From: Candidatus Nitrosocosmicus arcticus
Lineage (GTDB): Archaea > Thermoproteota > Nitrososphaeria > Nitrososphaerales > Nitrososphaeraceae
Direction: 5' to 3'
Assembly (NCBI RefSeq): GCF_007826885.1
Contig: NZ_ML675578.1
Location: 186,001-250,000 of the forward strand
DNA: 64,000 nucleotides
The notes beneath the pieces were generated by a model, which did no database searches, was not told the origin of the DNA, and worked only from the letters and a program-made list of their open reading frames with translations. Positions 9 through 54,377 of this stretch are shown in pieces. How positions within the stretch are numbered: the stretch's first letter is position 1; every line of letters begins with the position of its first letter. The position numbers and the translations under genes are program-made.

Positions 9-1364
9 ATGTCTGATGTCATCGACCAAATAACTCAAGGATTATCCAAGCCTTACTTTCAGAAAATATTAAGAAATCTAAAAAATAATCATAAGGAAAA
101 TGCAGATACGATATGTAAGTATATTCTGGTCGAACAAGCAGAGATTAATATTAAAAATAGTACCAAGGAAGGAAAAATAAAGGTCCTAATTTGGCTTTCT
201 AACTATTTTAACAATAAGAAAAGATTTCAAAACATGACCAAAGAAGATATCTTAGCATATCTTGACAGCATAAGAAAACCCCAGGGTCAAGGTAATGGTT
301 GGATAAATTCTTACAATGGTCGACAGATGATTTTTCTAAAATTTTTTAAATGGTTATACAACCCGCATGAACCAGATTCTACAAAAAGGATAACTCCTTC
401 CTGCATGAGCGGTATTAAAAGACTGTCTAAAAGAGAAAAAACTTCTTATCGTCCTTCAGATATTTGGGACGAAAGAGATATGTCAGTTTTCTTAAAATAT
501 TGTCCCAATAAAAGAGACAGGTGTTACTACGCTATGGCGTTTGATATGTCGGCCAGGCCCCATGAAATCCTTTCTTTACGTATTCGGGACATAAAGGTTT
601 GTCTTACTGATAATAATAAGCAATATGTGGAAGTAAGAATTCCTGATGGGAAAACGGGTTCTCGTATAGCTGTGCTGATAGATTCCATCCCATATCTAAA
701 AGAATGGCTTTTAGAACACCCTCATTCTTCCAATTCAGACGCATATATTTTCATATTAAAAAATGGGGCCAGACTGACATACGAGGGGTTAGCAAGCAGA
801 CGGACGTATTATGAAAAAATCTATTATCCATCTCTTCTAAGTATTAAATCGAGAGTTCAGGTGGAAGAACCAGATAAGGCAATAATTAGAAATCTTATTA
901 CTAAAAAATGGAACTTATATGTACTAAGACACTCGGCCTTAACTAAAAAGAGTCAGTTTCTTACAGAAGCCAATCTGAGATCACATGCTGGCTGGACGGC
1001 TTCAAGTAAAATGCCGCAGATATATATACACTTAAGTGGGGAATCGAACAATGCCATTCTTGAAAAACATGGTTTAATTTCTAAAGAAGTTAGAGAAAAA
1101 GAAAACATCTTAAACGGAAAAGAATGTCCGAATTGTCAAGAAATTAACAAGCATTTTAGCAAATTTTGTATGAAATGCAGAATGGTTCTTACTTACGATT
1201 CCTACAGGGAAACAAGAGACGATGAAAAGAATAAAATTAAGAAATTGGAGGATGATGCGAAGCAAAAAGATGAGATATTAAGTACACTTCTAGAAAAAGT
1301 TTCGCTTTTGGAAAAGGAAATTAGAGAAGAAAGACAGATAAGATTGTCGTTTGTCCCATTCTGA
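9..1364 (+). CDS. Tyrosine recombinase (phage/plasmid-type integrase) with C-terminal zinc ribbon and coiled coil
   Basis: A site-specific recombinase of the tyrosine (phage integrase) family, 451 residues. Visible active-site elements are R183 in SARPHEILSLR, a lysine in the DGKTGS turn, LRHS with R307 and H308, H326 in SHAGWT, and Y339 in QIYIHL as the probable nucleophile. The first histidine of the usual HxxR box is replaced by Y304. An N-terminal SAM-like core-binding region covers about residues 50-130. After the catalytic domain come a CxxC...CxxC zinc ribbon (CPNC near 375 and CMKC near 389) and a charged coiled coil to the end, a layout often met in thaumarchaeal integrases. It stands at the window edge and is followed by a plasmid-like operon, so it probably belongs to an integrated element reaching left or right. 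No attachment site could be identified. Confidence 0.88.
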   Translation: MSDVIDQITQGLSKPYFQKILRNLKNNHKENADTICKYILVEQAEINIKNSTKEGKIKVLIWLSNYFNNKKRFQNMTKEDILAYLDSIRKPQGQGNGWINSYNGRQMIFLKFFKWLYNPHEPDSTKRITPSCMSGIKRLSKREKTSYRPSDIWDERDMSVFLKYCPNKRDRCYYAMAFDMSARPHEILSLRIRDIKVCLTDNNKQYVEVRIPDGKTGSRIAVLIDSIPYLKEWLLEHPHSSNSDAYIFILKNGARLTYEGLASRRTYYEKIYYPSLLSIKSRVQVEEPDKAIIRNLITKKWNLYVLRHSALTKKSQFLTEANLRSHAGWTASSKMPQIYIHLSGESNNAILEKHGLISKEVREKENILNGKECPNCQEINKHFSKFCMKCRMVLTYDSYRETRDDEKNKIKKLEDDAKQKDEILSTLLEKVSLLEKEIREERQIRLSFVPF

Positions 1365-30584: not shown

Positions 30585-30645
30585 TTGGTCAGGCTAGTTG
30601 GGTTACAAGAAGGAGATTAGCGGGTTCAGATCCCGAACTTCGCAT
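30585..30645 (+). other. tRNA-Leu-like 3' fragment
   Basis: GTTGGTCAGGC resembles a D-arm, and GCGGGTTCAGATCCCG forms a T-arm followed by AACTTCGCA, a plausible 3' acceptor strand. No matching 5' acceptor strand (GCGAAGTT) is present. The same ACTTCGCA end occurs in the fragments at 49588 and 50888. It is therefore a remnant rather than a working tRNA. Confidence 0.4.
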
Positions 30646-37725: not shown

Positions 37726-37767
37726 AATTATACAATCCCCAAGATAACCTAATGGATTCGAATCCCA
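37726..37767 (+). repeat. Repeat C copy 2 (tRNA-T-arm-like)
   Basis: TACAATCCCCAAGATAACCT then AATGGATTCGAATCCCA, followed by AACTTTGTCTG. The tail is shared with the partial copy at 47882-47909 (TTCGAATCCCAAATTTCGTC). Confidence 0.6.
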
Positions 37768-37803
37768 AACTTTGTCTGTGTTGATTATTTGATATGTAAG
37801 GAA

Positions 37804-41402: not shown

Positions 41403-43772
41403 CTAACTTCCACCTATAGCTGCAGCGGGTTGTGACGCTAACGGCGGTTGTGTTGTTGTTGCTGTTTTAGCACCCTGTTTGAGAGCAGCATCCATATTTA
41501 CTTTGTTGTCTACACTAAGTTGAACATTCTCTCCGCCCAGATTCATTAGAAGTAATGCATTGACATTGCCACCACCGAGATTCACAGGATTTCCACTCAC
41601 AAGATCTAAACCTGTAGATTGTCCGGTCAGGTCTATAAAATATTGTGCTTGACCTGGAGCAGTAGAAGCTATTCTCTGTATTGGGACTATAGCGGATTGT
41701 GTTGTTTGCCCATCTTGTATTTTAGCTCCTACAAGTTGAATTCCTTTTTCGTCTGGTAAATTGAGTAAGACTTTCCCACTAGTAAGAATACATTGATCAA
41801 ATGCTGCAAGTATTCGTGCTTTCCCATTTTCCATTGGGGATGGACCCAAGACAATAGTTGCGGACTGTGGGGGACAATCTGCAGTGGGTGTTACTGCTCC
41901 GTCAAGTGTTCGTACTGTCAATCCTCCATCATTTCTCACAGTGACTTGATCATTGTTAATATTTGTTTTAGTAACGATAACGGTCTTTGTAGTTGTAGCC
42001 GGTGTTGTAGTTGTAGCCGGTGTTGTAGTTGTAGCCGGTGTTGTAGTTGTAGACTGGGTAGTACCCGGACCGACACATATACCTACATTTATGCTTGACT
42101 CAGCAGTTCCAGTTGGACATTTTCCGTCAGGTCCTTTAGTAAAAATTTGTGGTTCTCCTGTAGATGTGGTGCCACCTGTTTGCCCTGTTGGTGTTGTAGT
42201 GGTACCAGGTGTTGTAGTTGTTTTCGCTGATGGATTATCAGAAATGCACTTAGAACCACTTGGAGTAGCGGTTCTAGGAAAAACACTTACGATATGAGAT
42301 CCTGCTGGACATGTTCCATCTGAATTTATAGGTACTTCTACTTCTTTTGGCGCTGGTGTTTGGCTAGGTTGGTTATCTGATACACATTTAGAACCGCTAG
42401 TAGCCCCTGACCCTGTCTTTCCACCAAACCCTACGATATGAGATCCTGCTGGACATGTTCCATCTGAATTTTTAGGTACTTCTACTTCTTTTGATGTTGT
42501 TGTAGTTGTAGGTTCTTTACAAATTGGAAGATTTTGTATTTCGGGAGTAGATGAGCAAATAGCTTTGTTCTTACTATCAGAACTTACAGGGGGGGTAGTA
42601 GTTGGCGCTGGTGCGTTATTTGAAATGCACTTAGAACCGCTAGTAGCCCCTGACCCTGTCTTTCCACCAAACCCTACCTCGGATGATCCTGCTGGGCATG
42701 TTCCATCTAGGTTTTTGGGCACTTCCACTTCTTTTGGTGTTGTTGACGTTGTTGATCCCCCTGGTAATGTAGTTGTAGACTGGGTAGTACCCGGACCGAC
42801 ACATACACCTACGCTTGTTTCAGCAGTTCCAGTTGGACATTTTCCGTCAGGTCCTTTAGGAAAAGTTTGTGGTTCTCCTGCAGATGTGGTGCCATCTGTT
42901 TGCCCTGTTGATGTCGTTGGTGTAGTTGGTGTTGTTTGCCCTGCTGACGTAGTAGGTCCTGTTTTACCTGGTGTTGCAGTTGTACCTGGTGTTGTCGGTG
43001 GTTCACAAGCAGGAGCGGTGGGATTAGATTTGCAAAAAGGACTATTAGCTGAGAAAGATTTTCCATCATTCCCTGTTGTCCCAGATGGTGCTCCTGTTGT
43101 TGTCCCAGACGGTGCTCCTGTTGTTGTCCCAGACGGTGCTCCTGTTGTTGTCCCAGTAGTTGTTGATGATTTACAAAATGGAGCATCGGGAGAAGTCGTA
43201 CAAATATCATTCTTGACCGACCCGGAATCTGCAGGGATGGAACCAGATGGTGCTCCTGTTGTTGTACCACTAGTTGTCGATGATTTACAAGCAGGATCAT
43301 TAGGATTTGTTTTGCAAGGATCAGTATAGAAATAATCTCCCCACAGAACATTTGGTATTTCTGATGGTGGTGTAGGTGCTGTACTTGTACCATTCCCCGT
43401 ACTACATTCTTCCGTTGTAGCTGCCTGACTACCGTCTGGACAATTTACAAGTTCTGTTGGTGCTGTTGGTGCTGTTGGTGCTGTACTGCATTCTTCCGTT
43501 GTAGCTGCCTGACTACCGTCTGGACAATTTACAAGTTCGGGCTCAGTTTCTTCTTCTGGTACTTCAGGTTCTGACTCTACTTCTGGCTGTTCATTTTCTG
43601 ATGAGCTATCATCCCCTTCCGAACTACCTCCATCCGAACTACCTCCATCCGAACTACCTCCATCCGATGAACTAGCAAAGATATTAGATGACATTATCAT
43701 GGCTGGGTTAGCAGATAGCATCATGGCTAGTGTCAAAACTATGGTGAAACTAGCTGCAACTTTTGGATTCAT
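41403..43772 (-). CDS. Large Ser/Thr/Pro-rich repetitive surface protein
   Basis: 789 residues. A signal peptide (VAASFTIVLTLAMMLSANPA) is followed by three SDGGS repeats and a Glu-rich stretch. Then come many Thr/Pro/Gly linkers with small cysteine-paired modules of the type GPDGKCPTGTAETS...VCVGPGT and DGTCPAGSHIVGFGGKTGSG...KC, repeated at least five times. A C-terminal globular domain of about 180 residues ends LASQPAAAIGGS. At DNA level, blocks such as GATGGTGCTCCTGTTGTTGT are tandemly repeated (43084-43155). It is probably an exported, heavily O-glycosylated cell-surface or matrix protein. No membrane anchor is seen at the C-terminus. Confidence 0.8.
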   Translation of the reverse strand: MNPKVAASFTIVLTLAMMLSANPAMIMSSNIFASSSDGGSSDGGSSDGGSSEGDDSSSENEQPEVESEPEVPEEETEPELVNCPDGSQAATTEECSTAPTAPTAPTELVNCPDGSQAATTEECSTGNGTSTAPTPPSEIPNVLWGDYFYTDPCKTNPNDPACKSSTTSGTTTGAPSGSIPADSGSVKNDICTTSPDAPFCKSSTTTGTTTGAPSGTTTGAPSGTTTGAPSGTTGNDGKSFSANSPFCKSNPTAPACEPPTTPGTTATPGKTGPTTSAGQTTPTTPTTSTGQTDGTTSAGEPQTFPKGPDGKCPTGTAETSVGVCVGPGTTQSTTTLPGGSTTSTTPKEVEVPKNLDGTCPAGSSEVGFGGKTGSGATSGSKCISNNAPAPTTTPPVSSDSKNKAICSSTPEIQNLPICKEPTTTTTSKEVEVPKNSDGTCPAGSHIVGFGGKTGSGATSGSKCVSDNQPSQTPAPKEVEVPINSDGTCPAGSHIVSVFPRTATPSGSKCISDNPSAKTTTTPGTTTTPTGQTGGTTSTGEPQIFTKGPDGKCPTGTAESSINVGICVGPGTTQSTTTTPATTTTPATTTTPATTTKTVIVTKTNINNDQVTVRNDGGLTVRTLDGAVTPTADCPPQSATIVLGPSPMENGKARILAAFDQCILTSGKVLLNLPDEKGIQLVGAKIQDGQTTQSAIVPIQRIASTAPGQAQYFIDLTGQSTGLDLVSGNPVNLGGGNVNALLLMNLGGENVQLSVDNKVNMDAALKQGAKTATTTQPPLASQPAAAIGGS

Positions 43773-45863: not shown

Positions 45864-46715
45864 TTGACTTTGAATATAGGCTGCTCTGGATGGAGTTATG
45901 AAGGCTGGAAAGATAATTTTTATCCAAAGAAAATGGAAAATAAAGAATACTTATCCTATTACTCGAAATTTTTTAGATTTGTTGAAATCGATTCCACATA
46001 TTATCATATTCCTTCGAGATCTACAGTTAGAGGTTGGAAGGACAAAACACCTACAGATTTTAGATTTTCATTGAAATTTCCCAAGGTAATAACTCATGAG
46101 AAGAAATTAGAAGATGTGACAAAACCACTGTCTATATTATTCTATGCATTAGAACCACTAATTGATAAAACTCTAACATTATTAATACAACTTCCACCCT
46201 TTCTTTCAGAAAGCAAAGGCTTTAATCCTTTGCAAGACATGGTTCGACACCTAGATAAGAGATTCAGATATTCTCTAGAAGTGCGACATTCCTCATGGTT
46301 TATTGATAATGTATATGATTTTTTAAAAGAAAATAACATCTCATTAGTCTGGAGCGTAAGGGATGAATTGGAGCCTCCTTCAATTCTAACTTCTGATCAG
46401 GTTTACATCAGATTCATAGGCGATAGAAGCATTTCAGAGATGGACTTTGGTAAGATCGTAAAAAACAGAAGAAACGAGATGCTTGAATATGTAAAGCAGG
46501 TTAGAGATTTTCAGAATGAAAATTCAAGTATACGTGACGTATTAATAGCATTTAACAACCATTTTGCTGGCTTTGGTCCTCAATCCGTTAACGATTTTTT
46601 GAAACTGATGAATATGTCTGAAATAGATTGGAGGACCGAACTGGAAAGTTATGAAAACAATTCTAGTCGTTCCAATGGGAGATATCAGTCTAGTTTATCT
46701 GATTTCCCTAAATAG
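45864..46715 (+). CDS. DUF72 (YecE-like) TIM-barrel protein
   Basis: 283 residues from TTG: MTLNIGCSGWSYEGWKDNFY is the usual DUF72 opening. Other family marks are YYSKFFRFVEIDSTYYHIPS, FRFSLKFPKVITHEKKL, RYSLEVRHSSWF and the end region FNNHFAGFGPQSVNDF. The length matches the family. DUF72 proteins adopt a TIM-barrel fold with a conserved acidic and aromatic pocket; the reaction is unknown. It is monocistronic. Confidence 0.92.
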   Translation: MTLNIGCSGWSYEGWKDNFYPKKMENKEYLSYYSKFFRFVEIDSTYYHIPSRSTVRGWKDKTPTDFRFSLKFPKVITHEKKLEDVTKPLSILFYALEPLIDKTLTLLIQLPPFLSESKGFNPLQDMVRHLDKRFRYSLEVRHSSWFIDNVYDFLKENNISLVWSVRDELEPPSILTSDQVYIRFIGDRSISEMDFGKIVKNRRNEMLEYVKQVRDFQNENSSIRDVLIAFNNHFAGFGPQSVNDFLKLMNMSEIDWRTELESYENNSSRSNGRYQSSLSDFPK

Positions 46716-47144
46716 ACTTACTCCTTAATCAATTTCCGACAAATAAAACTATCATAATATTATTCTGCTCAATCTAAAAGTCATAATTAACAAAAGTTAC
46801 TATATTTGAAACTCAATTCTAGTTTTTATGACATTAAAAAGATTAAGATTAACCATTTTCTGTATGTATTTGATTAAAACTATTCTCAACCAAACAGTTC
46901 GAGAGAATAGATAAAATTTAACTATATGGGATTTAAAAAAATCAAAATGCAACAATAGCATAAATAATATTAAGAAATATTATATAATTCTAATATACTT
47001 TTGATCCCCTGTATACTTATTAGTCATCTTTATGTCCTATTCCTCATGACTAATCCTTATTTGCAAGAATGTCTTTTTGAGTCATTTACATTAAGCAAGA
47101 AGAAAGCAGGATGTTTTAGATGAGAATGGCAGGGGAGAGAAGAG
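46716..47144. other. Intergenic stretch ending in a duplicated regulatory block
   Basis: The last third (46988-47083) is the 96-bp block also found at 51944-52039. No other feature is supported. Confidence 0.45.
46988..47083 (+). promoter_or_regulatory. Conserved 96-bp upstream block, copy 1
   Basis: Identical to 51944-52039 except for one base, and lying exactly 62 bases before the start codon in both places. It contains a TATA-like TAATATACTTTT and an inverted repeat ATTAGTCAT (47019-47027) / ATGACTAAT (47046-47054) with an 18-base spacer. Its conservation exceeds that of the N-terminal coding parts, so it is likely a promoter and operator or a leader RNA. Confidence 0.7.
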
Positions 47145-47732
47145 ATGAACGATAACAAAAAGGCAATGAGAAAATTAAGACTGCAGGTACAAATGTCAGT
47201 TGATGGCTGTATCGCAGGACCCAACAATGAAATGGACTGGTTAGTTTGGGATGATGACTATTTAAAATACCTAAACGATATAACTGAATCAGTTGATACC
47301 ATCATTATGGGACGAAAAATGGTTAAAGGATTTATTCCATATTGGAGAGAAGTCGCGAACAAACCCGATGACCCCATGTATGAAATCGCTAAAAAAATGA
47401 TAGAAACACCAAAAATTGTTTTTACTAAATCATTGAACAAATCTGAGTGGCCAAATACTGAAATTGCAACAGGTGATCTCAAAGATGAAATTACAAAGTT
47501 AAAGAATCTAGATGGCAGAGATATCATAGTTTATGGTGGGATATCATTTGATTCCTCCTTGATTAAAGAAAAACTAATTGATGAATTTTATTTATTTATT
47601 AATCCTATTATATTGGGAAGCGGAAAAACTATCTTCAAAGACTTTAAAGAGATCCAAAAACTTACATTGATCGAATCAAAGGTGTTTGACTGCGGTTTAG
47701 TTTTGCTCCACTATGCGGTAAAGAAAAATTGA
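47145..47732 (+). CDS. Dihydrofolate-reductase-like (RibD C-terminal family) protein, paralogue 1
   Basis: 195 residues. KLRLQVQMSVDGCIAGPNNE and MDWLVWDDDY form the typical start, with SVDTIIMGRKMV as the NADPH-binding segment, and GRDIIVYGGISF and FYLFINPIILGSGKTIF in the C-terminal half. This is the RibD_C/DHFR-like fold whose members reduce pterins or related substrates with NADPH; the actual substrate of these stand-alone forms is unclear. A GGGGAGA ribosome-binding site precedes the ATG. It is a close paralogue of the gene at 52101, with a 187-bp identical stretch. Confidence 0.88.
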   Translation: MNDNKKAMRKLRLQVQMSVDGCIAGPNNEMDWLVWDDDYLKYLNDITESVDTIIMGRKMVKGFIPYWREVANKPDDPMYEIAKKMIETPKIVFTKSLNKSEWPNTEIATGDLKDEITKLKNLDGRDIIVYGGISFDSSLIKEKLIDEFYLFINPIILGSGKTIFKDFKEIQKLTLIESKVFDCGLVLLHYAVKKN

Positions 47733-47779
47733 AAAGTAAGATATCTTTTGATTTTACAATGTTATCTGCCAGGATTGCA

Positions 47780-47804
47780 CTCAAGCTTGAACCGTATCCC
47801 CACG
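47780..47804 (+). repeat. Repeat A copy 6
   Basis: CTCAAGCTTGAACCGTATCC then CCACG, lying about 50 bases after the stop of the reductase-like gene. Confidence 0.7.
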
Positions 47805-47854
47805 TGCTCGATTCAAGGAGAATAGTCTTTTGAAACACTCTCGATTTATTAACA

Positions 47855-47909
47855 TGCAATCGTCTTCGATGGAACCCACGTCCGAAAGACGTAGATTCGA
47901 ATCCCAAAT
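47855..47909 (+). repeat. tRNA-like repeat with small hairpin
   Basis: ACGTC-CGAAA-GACGT forms a 5-bp hairpin, followed by AGATTCGAATCCCAAATTTC and GTCTGG. The second part matches the tails of the repeats at 37756 and 10548. It looks like the 3' half of a tRNA without an acceptor partner. Confidence 0.45.
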
Positions 47910-48459
47910 TTCGTCTGGTTTTTTGTTGTTCAACTTATCAAGTTATTGTCCCTTAAGAAGAAAATATTATTTTACTTAGGTATAACAGATCGAATGTTTT
48001 TTTCATGGGAGTTTCCCTTATGCTTTACATGACTAGTTTATTCTAACATACAACAGGTTACCGTTAAGTATTATGCTTACCAAAATCTACCCCCCAAATT
48101 TAAAACAAATATGTAAATTCATAAATTAGATCCAATACTAAAATTACCAATTTCTAAATAGATTAAAATGGATTATGTTTTATAATGATTCTTTTTGGTA
48201 AGATGCAAGACAATGTAATCCTAATATAATGCGATAATACGGTAATTTGATCGAATGCTAGTTGTGATATGCATCCTAAGCCGCGTTCTTATTACCTTTC
48301 TGAAAAGTTTAAGTGTACTGATAAATATTAAAATGTGTCCTTTTTTTAGTAGTGAAAATGCACCAGAAACCACGGGGTCGATATTTTCATCCCAATCTCG
48401 TCTTTGAAATTAATCTATTACAACAAACGGAGTGAAAAAAAATTAGAATACTTCCTCAA
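47910..48459. other. Intergenic stretch
   Basis: AT-rich. A fragment at 48390-48410 (CATCCCAATCTCGTC) weakly echoes the repeat just described. No gene is supported. Confidence 0.35.
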
Positions 48460-49512
48460 GTGAAATTGGTTATGTATATTGATAGTAAGATAAGAAAAGA
48501 TTATCTTTTCATTGTAGCAGTTATATCGACTCTAATTTTATCGAGTATGACTGTGGTCAACGGCTTTACTAATCTTACATATGGTCAAACAAATGCTACC
48601 CAGGCCAATCCAACAAGCAATGTTACTACAAACCTGGTAAACATACAAGATATTCCATTACAAAAAGTCCGTGTTGGAGATATTGAAATGGCATACAAGA
48701 TGTTTGGTAAGGGTGACCCCATTATACTTCATAATGGTGCTAATTATGGCATGGATGCATGGGACCCAGCCCTTCTTACTCGTCTAGCGTCAAATCACAC
48801 AGTAATTATATTTGATAGTCGTGGAATAGGAAATACTGCATCGGGTTTCGAACCATATTCAATACAGTTACTTGGTAATGATACTGCTGGTTTAATGGAT
48901 GCTTTGGAAATCCCAGAGGCAAACGTTCTTGGATATTCTATGGGTTCTTACATAACTCAACAATTTGCAATCACGCATCCTGATAAGGTTAGTAGTATTA
49001 TGCTAATTGCTGGAACGTGTGGTGGAAAAGATCATGTACCTCCATCAGATGAGTTTATCCAATTACAAGAGGGTATTTTAAATAAATCTCTAAATAATAT
49101 ACCTCTTTCTCAGGATGAAATGAAGTCTCTTGTAAATGCCTCAGAAGGATCAGGATGGATAAAACTGCATCCTGAATCTCTTGATCTTCCAGAAAACATG
49201 ACATTCCAACAAATGAAACCTGGACTTTCATCTGAAGCAATGAACAATCAGTATAAAGGTGCAAAGGCTTGGGTGGCTTCCGACTGGAATGGTGCCTGTG
49301 ACGACCTTGCAAAGATAGACAAACCCATGCTGGTCATAGCAGGTACAGACGATAATGAATTAGTGCCTCATGAAAGTTCTTTGGTCATTGCAAGTAAAGT
49401 TCCAGGAGCATGGCTAGTACATATAAAAGACGCTGGTCATGCTATTATGAATCAATATCCAGATGAAGTTGGTATGGTATTGCAAACATTCCTATCTACT
49501 ATAAAACAATAG
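48460..49512 (+). CDS. Secreted alpha/beta-hydrolase, tandem paralogue 1
   Basis: 350 residues from GTG (ATG at 48472 also possible). The N-terminal signal (FIVAVISTLILSSMTVVNGF) is followed by a Ser/Thr/Asn linker and an alpha/beta-hydrolase domain: HNGANYGMDAWDPALL, then FDSRGIGNT, nucleophile elbow GYSMGS, acid in GTDDNELVP and histidine in DAGHAIMN. The catalytic triad is complete. It is probably an extracellular esterase or lipase-like enzyme. Its neighbour at 49775 is about 70% similar by eye. The pair arose by a tandem duplication that also copied the tRNA-like 3' flank. Confidence 0.85.
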   Translation: MKLVMYIDSKIRKDYLFIVAVISTLILSSMTVVNGFTNLTYGQTNATQANPTSNVTTNLVNIQDIPLQKVRVGDIEMAYKMFGKGDPIILHNGANYGMDAWDPALLTRLASNHTVIIFDSRGIGNTASGFEPYSIQLLGNDTAGLMDALEIPEANVLGYSMGSYITQQFAITHPDKVSSIMLIAGTCGGKDHVPPSDEFIQLQEGILNKSLNNIPLSQDEMKSLVNASEGSGWIKLHPESLDLPENMTFQQMKPGLSSEAMNNQYKGAKAWVASDWNGACDDLAKIDKPMLVIAGTDDNELVPHESSLVIASKVPGAWLVHIKDAGHAIMNQYPDEVGMVLQTFLSTIKQ

Positions 49513-49587
49513 GTGACCAAGCAGGAAAGAAGAATTCAATATTAATTTTATATGCAACGTAGGTATGTGGGATCGAAACAATCTCAA

Positions 49588-49715
49588 AAAAAGTGCGAAG
49601 TGCGGGATTTGAACCCACTTACTATTATTAGAGTTCAATCCCATTGATTATTGAGGGAGAAAGAGAACCCTTAATTCTGAGTCCTAGAGTTATACGCCAT
49701 TAGATGTGCCTCCTC
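49588..49715 (-). pseudogene. Decayed tRNA-Leu(CAG)-like gene
   Basis: On the minus strand GACTCAGAAT forms a CAG anticodon-loop context, as in archaeal tRNA-Leu. GTGGGTTCAAATCCCGC is a complete T-arm, ACTTCGCA a 3' acceptor strand, and a run of seven T follows as a terminator. A matching GCGAAGT 5' acceptor strand is not present, the anticodon stem pairs poorly and about 50 extra bases separate the anticodon and T arms. A TATA-like TATATAAAG stands upstream at about 49752-49760. It is most likely a tRNA remnant; an unusual intron-containing tRNA is less likely. Confidence 0.42.
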
Positions 49716-49774
49716 CCATTAAATTAAGTCCTCATGCAAATAGCCCCCCTCTTTATATACCCAATTGAGTTAGT

Positions 49775-50812
49775 GTGTTAGTGTATAACGATATACAGAT
49801 AAGAAAAGATTATCTTTTCATTGTAGTATTTATATCAACTTTAATTTTCTCAAGTACAACTTTGATCAACGGTTTTACTAATGTTGTGTATGGTCAAACA
49901 AATGTTACCCAGACCAATTCAAGCAATACTACCAATTTGGTAAATACCCAAGACATCCCATTAGAAAAAGTCCGTGTTGGAGATATTGAAATGGCGTATA
50001 AAATGTTTGGCAAGGGTGATCCTTTGATACTTCATAATGGTGCTTCTGATAATATGGATGCATGGGACCCAGCCCTTTTAAGTAGACTAGCGTCAAATAA
50101 CACTGTAATTGTGTTTGATAGTCGTGGAATAGGAAATACAACTGTTGGTACTGAACCATATTCTATAAAGTTACTTGCAAATGATACTGCTGGTTTAATG
50201 GACGCTTTGAAGATACAACAAGCAAATGTTTTAGGATATTCTTTAGGTACATTTACAACTCAACAATTTGCAATCACGCATCCTGATAAGGTTAGTAGTA
50301 TTACGTTAATTGCAGGATCATGCGGTGGTAAAGATGGGATACCTAAACCACCCGAGTTTTTAAAATTGCAAAAAGATATTGCAAACAAAACTCAAAATAA
50401 TATAACCGTTCCTCAAGAAGATTTCAAAGCTCTTGTAACCGCATCATTAGGATCAGGATGGGTAAAGCTGCATCCTGAATCTGCAAAGATTCCAGAAAAC
50501 AGTTCCCTATTAGGGTCAAAGCCCGGTCTTTCCGCTGAAGCATTGAACAATCAGGCAGATGCTGGATGGGGTTGGGAGGCTCAGAACTGGAGCGGTGTCT
50601 GTGACGACCTCGCAAAGATAGACAAGCCTCTGTTGGTCATAACAGGTACAGATGATAACCAGTACAATCCTCATCAGAATGCTTTAGTCATTGCAAGTAA
50701 AGTTCCAGGAGCCTGGCTAGTACAGATAAAAGACGCTGGTCATGCCGTTCCAAATCAATATCCAGAGGAAGTCGGTAAAATAATAGAAACATTCTTGTCG
50801 ACTGTAAAATAG
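49775..50812 (+). CDS. Secreted alpha/beta-hydrolase, tandem paralogue 2
   Basis: 345 residues from GTG. It has the same layout as the gene at 48460: signal peptide (FIVVFISTLIFSSTTLINGF), linker, then HNGASDNMDAWDPALL, nucleophile elbow GYSLGT, GTDDNQYNP and DAGHAVPN. The catalytic triad is complete. A TATA box (CTTTATATAC at 49751-49760) lies about 20 bases before the start. Compared with the first copy, most changes are in the lid region (about residues 200-270), suggesting different substrates. Confidence 0.85.
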   Translation: MLVYNDIQIRKDYLFIVVFISTLIFSSTTLINGFTNVVYGQTNVTQTNSSNTTNLVNTQDIPLEKVRVGDIEMAYKMFGKGDPLILHNGASDNMDAWDPALLSRLASNNTVIVFDSRGIGNTTVGTEPYSIKLLANDTAGLMDALKIQQANVLGYSLGTFTTQQFAITHPDKVSSITLIAGSCGGKDGIPKPPEFLKLQKDIANKTQNNITVPQEDFKALVTASLGSGWVKLHPESAKIPENSSLLGSKPGLSAEALNNQADAGWGWEAQNWSGVCDDLAKIDKPLLVITGTDDNQYNPHQNALVIASKVPGAWLVQIKDAGHAVPNQYPEEVGKIIETFLSTVK

Positions 50813-50868
50813 TGGGAGACCAAGCGGAAAGAAGAATCCGATATTAATTTTGTACGCAATATAGACAA

Positions 50869-50925
50869 GCGGGTTCAAATCAATCATAAAAAAGTGCGAA
50901 GTGCGGGATTTGGATCCTTCTCTAT
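50869..50925 (-). other. tRNA-Leu-like 3' fragment, duplicated copy
   Basis: On the minus strand GGATCCAAATCCCGCACTTC and GCACTTTTTT repeat the 3' end of the tRNA-like sequence at 49588, without the 5' part. It follows hydrolase copy 2 exactly as the other follows copy 1, so it came along in the tandem duplication. Confidence 0.5.
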
Positions 50926-50949
50926 TGGTTAGTGTCAAAATTAACTTTG

Positions 50950-50982
50950 GATTCTATTCAATCTTGAACCGTATCCCCACGC
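50950..50982 (+). repeat. Repeat A copy 7, full-length form
   Basis: GATTCTATTCAATC then TTGAACCGTATCCCCACG. The left flank matches copies 2 and 4. Confidence 0.75.
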
Positions 50983-51497
50983 GCCCAAACCAGTGATCCC
51001 TTTCATGGCGATATTCTCTATTCTAAAGCCATGTCATAATATACAATGCCCTTCAGGGATCCACAAAATAGATCAAATAAAGAAACTTGTGTCGATAGAG
51101 AGGCTATTATGAGCCAGTTCCGTGTTTGGCCTTTCCTCTCTACCATAATAATGACCTTCGGTGAACGGAACAGAAACCCGGGTCATCCTTTCAAATACTA
51201 TTTTATCAACGTTTTATTTAAACAATGATTATCAATATTCTGTAAATCTTCTTGACTTCTACGGATAAGCTCCATTTTGTATATAGGCTCTCTCAAAACC
51301 GTGTCCAATTCTACTCGAAAATCAACACAATATTTCAGACCCCAATTTTGTGACTATCACAAAAATTTAAATTTAGTAGTGGTAGATATTTTTGGAGAAT
51401 AAAGAGAATTCAAATAGGTATTATAGAAATAGAAAATTATTAATGAATAAGTGTTAAATTAATCAAAAGAGAACTTTGATTGTTTCTTTTTATAGAG
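50983..51497. other. Intergenic stretch
   Basis: Two overlapping frames of about 35-60 codons near 51046-51230 have no start context or family. Nothing else is seen. Confidence 0.35.
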
Positions 51498-51653
51498 TTA
51501 TTCTTTCTCACCCTCTTCCTTTTCCAGGATTTCCTTTTTGATTGATTTTAATATTTTCTTATCCTTTTCTTCTGGAGTATTTTCGGATATTCCCACTATA
51601 TTTGATTCCTCATACGCAAATTCATTTTCTCCGCTGTCATTAATCGACGACAT
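51498..51653 (-). CDS. Small acidic, highly charged protein
   Basis: 51 residues: MSSINDSGENEFAYEESNIV, then SENTPEEKDKKILKSIKKEI and LEKEEGEKE. The composition (Glu, Lys, Asp, Ser) and a predicted C-terminal helix suggest a soluble cytoplasmic protein. Clean ATG start; no family is recognised. Such short acidic proteins occur often in Nitrososphaerales genomes. Confidence 0.58.
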   Translation of the reverse strand: MSSINDSGENEFAYEESNIVGISENTPEEKDKKILKSIKKEILEKEEGEKE

Positions 51654-51737
51654 ATTAGTAACTTTTATACAAAAAAGGTTAACTATCTGTTTCTTTATTT
51701 TCTTGAAACAGAGAAGTCATCACTTTACTGAGATTAT

Positions 51738-51763
51738 ACAACCTTGAATCGTATCCCCACGGA
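51738..51763 (+). repeat. Repeat A copy 8
   Basis: ACAACCTTGAATCGTATCCC then CACGGA. It lies 85 bases upstream of the small acidic gene, in the opposite direction. Confidence 0.72.
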
Positions 51764-51943
51764 CATATTCAAGCAAATATAAGATATTCAGTAATTGGCT
51801 AGAGTTCTACTCTGGTTTATTCTTGACCACCTAGAGATTACAAATCTGACGCATTTCGTAGTTTCAAAGAATTGACATTGAGTATAAGTATTCAGAGATC
51901 AAGATGCAACAATATATAAAGAAAATTAAGGAATAATCTACAC

Positions 51944-52039
51944 TTCTAATATACTTTTGATCCCCTGTATACTTATTAGTCATCTTTATTTCCTATTCCT
52001 CATGACTAATCCTTATTTGCAAGAATGTCTTTTTGAGTC
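51944..52039 (+). promoter_or_regulatory. Conserved 96-bp upstream block, copy 2
   Basis: Differs by one base from 46988-47083 and is placed identically, 62 bases before its start codon. Inverted repeat arms ATTAGTCAT at 51975-51983 and ATGACTAAT at 52002-52010. Confidence 0.7.
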
Positions 52040-52100
52040 GATGAAAATAATCAGAAGGAGAAAGCAAGATCTTCTAAATGAAAATAGTCGGCGAGTATAG

Positions 52101-52694
52101 ATGAATAATAATAATAAAGTAATGAGAAAATTAAAACTGCAGGTACAAATGTCCATAGATGGTTGCATAGCAGGACCAAATAATGAAATGGACTGGATGG
52201 TCTTTTATGGGGATGAAAAACTCAAAGAATATGAAAACAGGTTGCACGAGCCAGTTGATACCATTCTTCTGGGAAGAAAAATGACCAATGAATTTGTTTC
52301 CTATTGGTCTAATGTGATGAACAAACCTGAAGACCCTGAATATGCATTCGCTAAAAAAATGATAGAAACACCAAAAATTGTTTTTACTAAATCATTGAAC
52401 AAATCTGAGTGGCCAAATACTGAAATTGCAACAGGTGATCTCAAAGATGAAATTACAAAGTTAAAGAATCTAGATGGCAGAGATATCATAGTTTATGGTG
52501 GGATATCATTTGATTCCTCCTTGATTAAAGAAAACTTAATCGATGAATTTTATTTGTTTATTAATCCTGTAACAATTGGGAATGGAAAGACCATATTTAA
52601 GGACCTAAAAGAGATCCGTAAGTTCACCCTTATTGAGTCAATAGCGTTTGACTCTGGAATAGTTTTGCTCCACTATGAGGTAAAGAAAAATTGA
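52101..52694 (+). CDS. Dihydrofolate-reductase-like (RibD C-terminal family) protein, paralogue 2
   Basis: 197 residues with the same motifs as the gene at 47145 (MSIDGCIAGPNNEMDWMVFY, then PVDTILLGRKMTNEFVSYW). Residues 83-144 are encoded by DNA identical to the paralogue (52348-52534), whereas the first 80 and last 50 codons have diverged clearly. This uneven identity points to recent gene conversion. The two proteins probably share cofactor use and differ in substrate pocket. Confidence 0.88.
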   Translation: MNNNNKVMRKLKLQVQMSIDGCIAGPNNEMDWMVFYGDEKLKEYENRLHEPVDTILLGRKMTNEFVSYWSNVMNKPEDPEYAFAKKMIETPKIVFTKSLNKSEWPNTEIATGDLKDEITKLKNLDGRDIIVYGGISFDSSLIKENLIDEFYLFINPVTIGNGKTIFKDLKEIRKFTLIESIAFDSGIVLLHYEVKKN

Positions 52695-53225
52695 CAGCAG
52701 GATACATGAATAAATGAATAAAAAAATCCGTTGGTTATTTTTTGTATATTAATTCTTTTTGAGAGTACCGACAATTATGAAATCCTTCCATAAGAATAAA
52801 GAATTAATACTGTTTCAAAATATTTGAGATCATATTAAACATTGATATTATTTATTGGAACACGATACTTGTATTAAACTAAAACTATCTTGTAGCGGTA
52901 TATTGTAGCACCACAAGTAGAAAATGTATTTATACATTGCAAATTTCCTGTACATGAAATACTTAAAGTCCAATATTTTTGAATATGACTCCCAGGGTTT
53001 TTTTGTATATGACTCCATTTAATACGACTCCAGGTAAAGATACCGGTCCCAACTAAATTCTAACGCACTTATCCCTCCAAAGTCTTTTTTTCTTAATTTC
53101 AATCTATATGTATTCTAAATTCAGATTACCAAAATGTCTAGATTCAAGAGTGTTTGATTACGATAATTTGGTGGGATTTTAGTGAAGGCTATTAATCATG
53201 AAGTCTTTAAAGTAACTGGGAATTC
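52695..53225. other. Intergenic stretch with short direct repeats
   Basis: ATATGACTCC occurs at about 52983 and 53005 with a variant (ATACGACTCC) at 53021. No gene is supported. Confidence 0.35.
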
Positions 53226-53588
53226 ATGACTGATTATGAGTTTTATGAAGATGTGACAGTATCTTGTGAAAAGTGTGGTAAGAATGACAAAGCCTATTTA
53301 TGGTTTGATAAAAAAGAGCAGGTGTATTTGATTAGTTGTGATAAATGTGGTGTAAATGAGAAATCGGTGGGGGCGGCGCAGGCTGCTAAGAACAAACAGA
53401 TGTTCTGTTGTGAAGGTTTTAAAGATTTCTTAAATCAAGAATTATATATTGATGAAAATCCAAGAGTGTTTGAGGTTATGGGAAAATTTTTCTACTATTT
53501 TGAAAATAGTCCTAATCCAGTTGTTGAACAGATAAAGTTTTGTCCTTTCTGTGGAATTAAATTGGATCTGGTTGGGATGGCGGGATAA
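53226..53588 (+). CDS. Double zinc-ribbon protein
   Basis: 120 residues. The first ribbon is CEKCGKND...SCDKCGVNE (two CxxC pairs). The second is the C-terminal FCCEGF and FCPFCGIKL pair around a helical insert. The second part is shared with the small proteins at 62101 and 58498 (FCCE-like start and CPFCG/CPYCG end), so this is a local family. A structural zinc role is certain by motif. The cellular function is unknown; nucleic-acid or protein binding is possible. Confidence 0.72.
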   Translation: MTDYEFYEDVTVSCEKCGKNDKAYLWFDKKEQVYLISCDKCGVNEKSVGAAQAAKNKQMFCCEGFKDFLNQELYIDENPRVFEVMGKFFYYFENSPNPVVEQIKFCPFCGIKLDLVGMAG

Positions 53589-53993
53589 CTGGCTGATAAA
53601 ATTTATGTTTTAAACAATATCTCGAATCGTTTGGAGTTTTGAGTATGAAGATGATAGCCCATAACTCTTGATATTTGACGGTGGTTTTTATCCATCGCCC
53701 CCCACCACTTTTTTTGTTGTATTGAGATTGTTTAAGTTAGATTTGTATTATCTCTAATCGTGACCTGTTAGTTTCCAGAATTGCACTACCCCATTAGTTG
53801 TTCAGACATGCAATTGACTTACTATCTATTGTCTGGGCTTGTGATTCTGTTTATGACATTTCTCTAATTTCATCCTCAATATAATCATTCTTGCTCGCAA
53901 TCAGATAAAGGATATATCTTTGACTGTATTCGGTCTCCTAGGAGATCGGCAGTTTTACATATTTTATCAATAATTATTTGTGTCACTGGGGCG
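53589..53993. other. Intergenic stretch
   Basis: A pair of convergent genes ends here. GTCTCCTAGGAGATCGGC near 53931 contains a small palindrome (TCTCCTAGGAGA). No gene. Confidence 0.35.
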
Positions 53994-54377
53994 TTACATA
54001 GAATAACAAAGTTCATGTACGTATCTTTGTAATTCTTTTAGTTTTACGGGCTTGTGCAAAACCTCTGATATTCGTGCTTCTTTAAAATCATCGTTATTGA
54101 GATATTCGTCATCAAAAAATCCAGTAATAAGGAGAATTTTTACAGTTGAACTATTATATCTTATTTTTTTAGCAAGATCGATCCCGTTCAGATTAGGCAT
54201 TTTTAGGTCTGCAATTACTAACCAATACTCTCGAGGATTCTCGTTAAAATACTTCAGTGCTAATAACGGATCGGTAAAAGACACAGTATTAAACCCAGAT
54301 CTTTTTAACAACTCCCCAAAAATATATGCGAGTTCCTCATCATCGTCCACCACCATCACTATCGGGGGTGTGGACAT
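53994..54377 (-). CDS. Single-domain response regulator
   Basis: 127 residues. MVVDDDEELAYIFGELLKRS holds the acidic pocket, WLVIADLKMPN the phospho-accepting D57, LLITGFF the conserved Thr, and LHKPVKL the Lys. There is no output domain. It lies divergently next to the large histidine kinase at 54604, its probable partner. The arrangement mirrors the pair at 33034/35629, indicating duplication of a whole kinase-regulator module. Confidence 0.92.
   Translation of the reverse strand: MSTPPIVMVVDDDEELAYIFGELLKRSGFNTVSFTDPLLALKYFNENPREYWLVIADLKMPNLNGIDLAKKIRYNSSTVKILLITGFFDDEYLNNDDFKEARISEVLHKPVKLKELQRYVHELCYSM

What the first reader, a model, noticed from the sequence alone, without database searches (positions are those of the whole stretch)
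48460..50925. Tandem duplication of a secreted hydrolase together with a tRNA-Leu-like end
Each hydrolase gene is followed by the same GTGCGAAGTGCGGGATTT segment. The first copy retains most of a tRNA-Leu(CAG)-like sequence, with T-run terminator and an upstream TATATAAAG, but without a matching 5' acceptor strand. It may be an integration scar that seeded the duplication.
Basis: partly seen in the sequence, partly recalled or inferred. Interest (0 to 1): 0.5.

Follow-up and report, generated by a model that had tools for sequence, protein, structure and literature searches.

The report
Archaeal gene cassettes on tRNA ends
In an ammonia-oxidising archaeon, two neighbouring genes for a secreted enzyme are not a local duplicate pair but separate members of a cassette array whose joints are copies of the end of a glycine tRNA gene; a related genome lacks exactly one of them, which suggests that single genes move in and out of these joints much as bacterial integron cassettes do.

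Summary
The shared segment after each hydrolase gene is real, but it is the 3' end of tRNA-Gly(CCC), not tRNA-Leu(CAG); the intact gene is at G000:C2:65977-66051. No tRNA gene was found in the window, and the TATA box fits hydrolase 2. Relatives place the genome in Candidatus Nitrosocosmicus.

All 15 genomes of the genus carry this tRNA end, 12 of 15 more than once, in one-directional arrays (65 of 66 sites on the majority strand of their contig), headed by the intact tRNA in six genomes. Homology between arrays breaks at these sites far more often than in shifted controls. A related contig lacks exactly hydrolase 2 plus one site (1301 bp), and the switch falls at the tRNA core. The two hydrolases are not sisters in a tree, so tandem duplication is rejected. 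An SSV-type integrase sits beside this tRNA end at 7 of 8 loci of its close clade; that it mobilises integrase-less cassettes in trans is inferred.

The pair lies within a second one-directional repeat array (TTGAAYCGTATCCCCAC; 114 of 116 hits on the majority strand) with unknown recombinase. Closest known: Dehalococcoides ssrA island arrays with cis-mobilizable elements. It works like an integron but was not shown to be one.

The parts
48460..49512 (+). hydrolase 1 (H1), alpha/beta-hydrolase, 350 aa from GTG (an in-frame ATG lies at 48473 or nearby)
   Evidence: sister to G012 C169 and G004 3358667 copies
49593..49616 (-). left type-1 site: 3' end of tRNA-Gly(CCC), core GGGTTCAAATCCCGCACTTCGCAC on the minus strand
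49751..49759 (+). CTTTATATA, probable TATA box of hydrolase 2 (inference)
49775..50812 (+). hydrolase 2 (H2), alpha/beta-hydrolase, 345 aa
49617..50917 (.). H2 cassette, 1301 bp including one core, absent from the G012 C169 allele
50894..50917 (-). right type-1 site (two differences from the tRNA core)
47772..47811 (+). type-2 repeat site before the hydrolase pair
50949..50990 (+). type-2 repeat site behind the hydrolase pair

Best explanation
The two hydrolase genes are cargo of small gene cassettes whose ends are attachment sites made from the 3' end of tRNA-Gly(CCC). A tyrosine recombinase of the SSV type, encoded directly behind the tRNA-Gly gene (G000:C2:66205-67302), most likely acts in trans: it recombines a cassette with the tRNA end or with any copy of it, the tRNA keeps an intact 3' end, and cassettes stack in one direction. 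Shown: the core equals the tRNA-Gly(CCC) 3' end; one-directional arrays in the genus, headed by the intact tRNA in six genomes; homology breaks at the sites; a precise 1301-bp presence/absence of the H2 cassette with the switch at the core; H1 and H2 are not sisters; the close integrase clade keeps company with the tRNA end. Inferred: that this integrase does the work, that it works in trans, that a circle is the intermediate, and whether the window gained the cassette or G012 lost it. In this window the pair sits between two sites of a second array (type 2) whose recombinase is unknown.
For: Source tRNA. Copies: 15 of 15 genomes of the genus match the 241-bp query, mostly through the tRNA end; by pattern with up to 1 mismatch 12 of 15 have two to nine copies, while of 55 other genomes of the family 37 have it, 35 exactly once. 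Strand: 65 of 66 sites in 17 contigs. Spacing: 45 same-strand spacings, median 1799 bp. Homologous blocks of at least 300 bp begin (20) or end (31) at a site in both partners, of 241, against means of 0.07 and 0.25 and maxima of 3 and 4 in 2000 shifts. Allele without H2. Tree. Same cassettes in another order in G004 and G012. Integrase PF16795 at 3.1e-8; 7 of 8 loci at 48% identity or more lie just behind a type-1 site. Part-copies of the core around 62 cassette-type sites: 23, 16 and 29 sites against 2.1%, 0.3% and 4.6% in random stretches.
Against: Six genomes (G003, G004, G007, G008, G010, G014) have no match to this integrase at 1e-5, G003 and G004 among them with clear arrays. The G012 allele comes from a draft metagenome bin. 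The window sites lie on another contig than the tRNA-Gly gene. 39 of 62 cassette-type sites lack the upstream inverted motif at 2 mismatches. Part of the 31 block ends is the conserved flank upstream of the tRNA, and blocks are not independent. One of three type-1 sites in the window, at 30615, is on the other strand. No solved integrase was found by sequence at E up to 1.
Confidence: 0.72

Rival explanations
1. Local tandem duplication of hydrolase plus tRNA-end remnant, as first proposed.
For: The copies are 79% identical over 1154 bp in direct order, flanks and core included.
Against: H1 is sister to G012 and G004 copies with supports 100/98 and 98/100, and H2 is elsewhere; the G012 contig has H1, core and right flank but no H2.
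Confidence: 0.05
2. The cassettes are relics of old integrations, and today's order changes by homologous recombination between cassettes, not by site-specific recombination.
For: H cassettes share long homology; the G004 copy at 3358667 has a leader most like that before H2 (93%) and a gene closer to H1, which looks like homologous exchange; several genomes lack the integrase.
Against: The switch between the window and G012 lies in the A-run and core of under 30 bp although 1.1 kb of homology was on offer; breaks at sites also join cassettes that share no homology.
Confidence: 0.17
3. The intergenic stretch is a functional unusual tRNA or tRNA-like RNA gene on the minus strand.
For: T-run behind the 3' end and a TATA-like box upstream; 93% conserved in G004.
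Against: No tRNA by ARAGORN, with and without introns, or cmscan; an intact tRNA-Gly(CCC) exists; the G004 copy is beside a homologous hydrolase.
Confidence: 0.02
4. The repeats are a transposable element with a tRNA-like end that inserts with a strand preference.
For: Sites also occur away from the tRNA-Gly gene (window, C8, G003 1385-1391 kb).
Against: Sites cluster behind the tRNA gene on its strand, and what differs between alleles is a gene plus one site, not the repeat alone.
Confidence: 0.04

Closest known systems
Dehalococcoides ssrA genomic-island arrays, with islands lacking the integration module read as cis-mobilizable elements (PMC3146451; passages read)
   Same: Direct repeats of an RNA gene's 3' end (20 bp) follow that gene over up to 100 kb; islands stack in tandem; 15 of them have no integration module and are held to be mobilised by accretion.
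   Different: Bacterium, tmRNA gene and serine recombinase there; here an archaeon, tRNA-Gly(CCC), an SSV-type integrase, and many units of about 1-2 kb.
Integrons, including archaeal ones (PMC9668308; passages read)
   Same: Gene cassettes, one site per cassette, one-directional arrays, many arrays without a neighbouring integrase.
   Different: Integrons use IntI and folded attC sites; here the core is a tRNA end and the nearby integrase matches PF16795; no attC-like partner box was found at the type-2 sites. Formal attC and IntI models were not run.
Thaumarchaeal integrated elements in tRNA genes (PMC6563490; abstract, outline and passages read)
   Same: Integrase elements in tRNA genes, short att sites (median 17 bp), tandem integrations.
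   Different: That survey of 21 genomes has no mention of Nitrosocosmicus, gives 2.6 kb as its smallest element, and lists mobile integrons among classes not detected in archaea. I saw no arrays of single-gene integrase-less units in the passages.
SSV-type archaeal integrases (PMC8371274; passages read)
   Same: PF16795 domain, integrase gene next to the tRNA target.
   Different: The integrase gene is one open frame of 365 aa behind the tRNA, not split by integration; the cassettes carry none.

Membership tests
Integron | IntI integrase next to the array | tested here: inconclusive
   The integrase beside tRNA-Gly matches PF16795; PF00589 is not listed for it at E up to 1. The IntI-specific domain model was not run.
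Integron | attC sites that fold through paired R''/L'' and L'/R' boxes | tested here: inconclusive
   At type-2 sites an RYYYAAC word occurs at one place in 47 of 79 cores, but no GTTRRRY partner recurs at a fixed place nearby and no enriched partner word was found within 200 bp. No attC covariance model was run.
Integron | one-directional array of cassettes, one site each | tested here: met
   65 of 66 type-1 sites and 114 of 116 type-2 hits on the majority strand.
Tandem accretion / cis-mobilizable elements at an RNA gene | direct repeats of the RNA gene's 3' end behind the intact gene on its strand | tested here: met
   Six genomes: G000, G001, G002, G003, G004, G005.
Tandem accretion / cis-mobilizable elements at an RNA gene | units bounded by att sites without their own integrase | tested here: met
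   H cassettes of about 1.3 kb hold one hydrolase gene.
Tandem accretion / cis-mobilizable elements at an RNA gene | mobilisation by an integrase supplied in cis or trans | not testable with these tools
   Needs an experiment; only the company of integrase and tRNA end was tested.
SSV-type integrative element | SSV-type integrase adjacent to the target tRNA | tested here: met
   PF16795, 3.1e-8, gene start 153 bp behind the site.
SSV-type integrative element | integrase gene split by integration (recalled trait of SSV1) | tested here: not met
   Open frame of 365 aa.
tRNA gene (Leu CAG, intact or intron-containing) | recognised by a tRNA finder or the tRNA covariance model | tested here: not met

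The most novel reading that the evidence does not exclude
Candidatus Nitrosocosmicus has an integron-like capacity of its own that arose apart from IntI/attC: one cassette platform at tRNA-Gly(CCC) served by an SSV-type integrase, and a second chromosomal super-array of about 100-120 kb on a 33-bp dyad repeat (GATTCTATTCAACCTTGAACCGTATCCCCACG) with its own still unknown recombinase, the second able to hold pieces of the first.
Probability: 0.4. Interest if true: 0.85.

Novelty: new variant of a known kind. Interest (0 to 1): 0.7.

Why it matters
Counterparts of mobile integrons were listed as not detected in archaea in the thaumarchaeal survey (PMC6563490), and the archaeal integrons described since are IntI/attC systems in metagenome-assembled genomes (PMC9668308). 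A cassette platform built from a tRNA end and an SSV-type integrase would show that integron-like gene shuffling arose more than once. It would help explain how ammonia oxidisers of this genus vary their secreted enzymes, and it offers a defined integrase and sites to test.

Tried and rejected
tRNA-Leu(CAG), intron-containing tRNA: not supported. Local alignment of the site with the own tRNA loci gave as best hits 3' ends (Met, then tRNA-Gly with 27 identical bases) and otherwise scattered matches. attC reading of type 2: no partner box found, though an RYYYAAC word is in 47 of 79 cores. Integrase near the type-2 heads (G004:323964, G003:514324, G000:C9:133177) as the type-2 enzyme: inconclusive, since its family is in 14 of 15 genomes, including the five without a type-2 match, and is missing in G014, which has type-2 sites. 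Cross-genus transfer: G059 (another genus by the tool's label) shares 2.9 kb at 91.6% with G005, starting at a site, and the tree joins their hydrolases (100/99); but the G059 contig is 5 kb, the genome is listed with 4% contamination, and it gave no match to the gene upstream of the tRNA, so mis-binning is not excluded and nothing rests on it.

Rows dropped: 3 of 14 hydrolase hits were left out of the tree as under 250 aa aligned; type-1 sites under nhmmer score 20 or 22; type-2 hits with E of 0.01 or more in the break test, while hits up to E 1 are in the strand counts. Break tests skip alignments under 300 bp (type 1) or 400 bp (type 2) and opposite-strand ones. The shift null keeps site spacing but not gene structure, and blocks are not independent. 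The array regions were chosen because they hold sites.

Full report
What was claimed. Two secreted hydrolases, each followed by the same GTGCGAAGTGCGGGATTT segment, with a tRNA-Leu(CAG)-like remnant between them that may have seeded a tandem duplication.

The observation. Both genes (48460-49512, 49775-50812, plus strand) and both segments are there. They are alpha/beta-hydrolases (PF00561); among solved structures the best sequence relatives of H2 are called Est1 / Esterase 1 (1.5e-33). The segment is the reverse complement of the 3' end of tRNA-Gly(CCC), whose intact gene lies at G000:C2:65977-66051. ARAGORN finds no tRNA in the window, and cmscan of 46000-54000 lists none at E up to 5. The rest of the supposed tRNA has no tRNA counterpart in the genome. 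The upstream TATA box fits the second hydrolase gene (inference from position).

The wider pattern. A search with 241 bases around the site matched in 15 of 15 genomes of the genus, mostly through the tRNA end and often in clusters. By DNA pattern (21 nt, up to 1 mismatch) 12 of 15 genomes of the genus have it two to nine times and 3 once; of 55 further genomes of the family 37 have it, 35 exactly once, G054 twice and G059 six times. The genus is Candidatus Nitrosocosmicus by its relatives: an exact scan of the named collection with the type-2 word returned 30 stretches, 27 titled Nitrosocosmicus and 3 from one Nitrososphaerales bin (the tool warns that the window's own records may be left out). 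G012 C169 agrees in length and match position with JARFXS010000049.1 (isolate WA-bin7), and G014 C64 in length with JAPSGR010000023.1.

Arrays. In G000, G001, G002, G003, G004 and G005 the intact tRNA-Gly(CCC) is followed on its own strand by further copies of its 3' end. In 17 contigs with at least two sites 65 of 66 sites are on the majority strand of their contig; the exception is window 30615. The 45 same-strand spacings have a median of 1799 bp, 29 of them up to 3 kb; several are near 1.3 kb, the size of a hydrolase cassette, though not all of those hold a hydrolase. Around the core lie inverted and direct part-copies of it (GGGATTTGAAC and CGGGTTCTC on one side, GATTTGAACC on the other), at 23, 16 and 29 of 62 cassette-type sites against 2.1%, 0.3% and 4.6% in random stretches. 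I read these as arm sites of an attP; that is inference.

Cassettes move as units. Blocks of homology between array regions begin at a site in both partners 20 times and end there 31 times, of 241, against means of 0.07 and 0.25 and maxima of 3 and 4 in 2000 shifts. Part of the 31 is the conserved flank upstream of the tRNA, whose likeness between genomes stops at the tRNA's 3' end, as expected for an integration point. The cassettes G004_3386584 and G004_3369498 are, at 92% and 91%, two neighbouring cassettes of G012 C52, there in the other order; in G004 about 16 kb lie between them.

The allele. Window 48448-49616 (H1, its 3' flank and the left core) is 95.1% identical to G012 C169, where the core is joined directly to what in the window follows the right core; the public record L186 shows the same junction. 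Compared without gaps, 52 of 60 bases left of the core agree between the left copy and G012 (right copy 19, lowered by a one-base shift), and 53 of 56 right of the core agree between the right copy and G012 (left copy 21). The difference is 1301 bp: H2 plus one core. A C/T difference near the end of the core and the differences before the A-run put the switch in a stretch of under 30 bp made of the A-run and the first 21 bases of the core. With 1.1 kb of homology between H1 and H2 on offer, a switch there speaks for site-specific recombination. Whether the window gained or G012 lost the cassette is open.

Not a local duplication. In a tree of 11 hydrolases H1 groups with the G012 C169 and G004 3358667 copies (100/98, 98/100). 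H2 is 70% identical to H1; its nearest row by identity is G004 3370853 (79%), and its place beside G014 C92 is weakly supported (84/80). The G004 3358667 copy has a leader most like that before H2 and a gene closer to H1, so homologous exchange between cassettes also happens.

Which recombinase. Directly behind tRNA-Gly(CCC) in G000 lies a 365-aa protein with an archaeal phage integrase domain (PF16795, 3.1e-8). Matches of 48% identity or more lie at 8 loci, 7 of them just behind a type-1 site (G000, G013 twice, G012, G006, and broken copies in G002 and G001); the eighth is a fragment at G002:355198. The other matches, at 42% or less and outside the two broken loci, are at places without a type-1 match. 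Six genomes have no match at 1e-5, G003 and G004 with clear arrays among them. Five integrases of the clade align with 74% mean column identity, with arginine, lysine and histidine residues and the SAKHYLIH tyrosine kept where the sequence is complete (their catalytic role is recalled and inferred). No relative with a solved structure was found by sequence.

The second array. Within the window the pair sits between two copies of another repeat, core TTGAAYCGTATCCCCAC; a profile gives nine sites, all on the plus strand. In five regions of four genomes 114 of 116 hits at E up to 1 lie on the majority strand of their region (39 of 39 in G004 over about 120 kb, 40 of 41 in G003); the other two are weak (E 0.5 and 0.7); reversed sequence gave 1 hit at E below 1 and none below 0.01. 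The profile was built from 53 words found on either strand of the same regions. Of 87 homologous blocks 12 begin and 5 end at such sites in both partners, against 0.02 each in shifts, maxima 3 and 1; among 63 pairs between genomes it is 8 and 4. Ten of 15 genomes of the genus have the word; G002, G007, G009, G010 and G011 have none; the reversed word gave 0 in all 15. The consensus is a dyad (GAT-N4-TTCAA-CC-TTGAA-N4-ATC), a form seen in tyrosine-recombinase cores (recalled). I did not find its enzyme. In both the window and G012 the type-1 core next to the right flank lies about 31 bp from a type-2 site.

What is known. The Dehalococcoides ssrA arrays (PMC3146451, passages) are the closest described case I found, and cis-mobilizable elements with accretion are the general concept. 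Thaumarchaeal elements in tRNA genes are surveyed in PMC6563490 (outline, abstract, passages). The review of archaeal tyrosine recombinases notes tandem integration and integrase-less elements (PMC8371274, passages). A 2026 paper on skin Nitrosocosmicus mentions islands flanked by integrases, and in the passages seen not these arrays (PMC13245735). I found no description of these arrays in an open-licence library with searches; most subscription papers and bioRxiv preprints are not in it.

Verdict. The finding is real but misread. It is one clean example of a genus-wide cassette array on tRNA-Gly ends, a new archaeal variant of a known kind, beside an unexplained second array.

Noticed in passing
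window 25776-58089 (nine sites); G004:C1:197211-317277; G003:C1:531257-633745; G000:C9:75904-122901; G014:C64: Second repeat family, core TTGAAYCGTATCCCCAC, in one-directional arrays of up to about 120 kb with homology breaks at the sites; recombinase unknown.
   Followed up: partly
window 47862-47925 and 37755-37778; G000:C15:1127, C16:10943, C16:12061, C9:69587: Third dispersed repeat with a tRNA-like T-loop (ATTCGAATCCCAAACTTTCGTCTGG-like); no intact tRNA source was found in the own genome.
   Followed up: partly
G000:C2:84128-84421; G004:C1:3378086: Copy of the upstream flank and 5' part of tRNA-Gly(CCC) in which the anticodon arm is replaced so that CGAAGTGCGGG-TTCAAAT-CCCGCACTTCG forms a perfect hairpin; it passes the tRNA model's cut-off in G000 but ARAGORN does not call it.
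   Followed up: no
window 9-1364, + strand: Tyrosine integrase (451 aa, PF00589 at 5.1e-5, below the curated cut-off) that starts 65 bp behind tRNA-Ser(GCT) at G000:C1:185860-185943, a further tRNA-associated element.
   Followed up: no
window 46941-47732 and 51898-52694: Two RibD_C-domain genes, 83% identical at DNA level, flank the hydrolase pair; homology of the first with G004 and G003 ends at a type-2 site.
   Followed up: partly
window 41403-43772, - strand: Repeat-rich 789-aa protein without a Pfam match at E up to 0.01.
   Followed up: no
G000:C2:66052-66200: Several TTGTTGAC words directly behind tRNA-Gly(CCC), before the integrase gene, perhaps arm sites.
   Followed up: no
G004:C1:3328301-3328967 and 3349116-3349782: 667-bp perfect inverted repeat inside the type-1 array region, perhaps an insertion sequence.
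   Followed up: no
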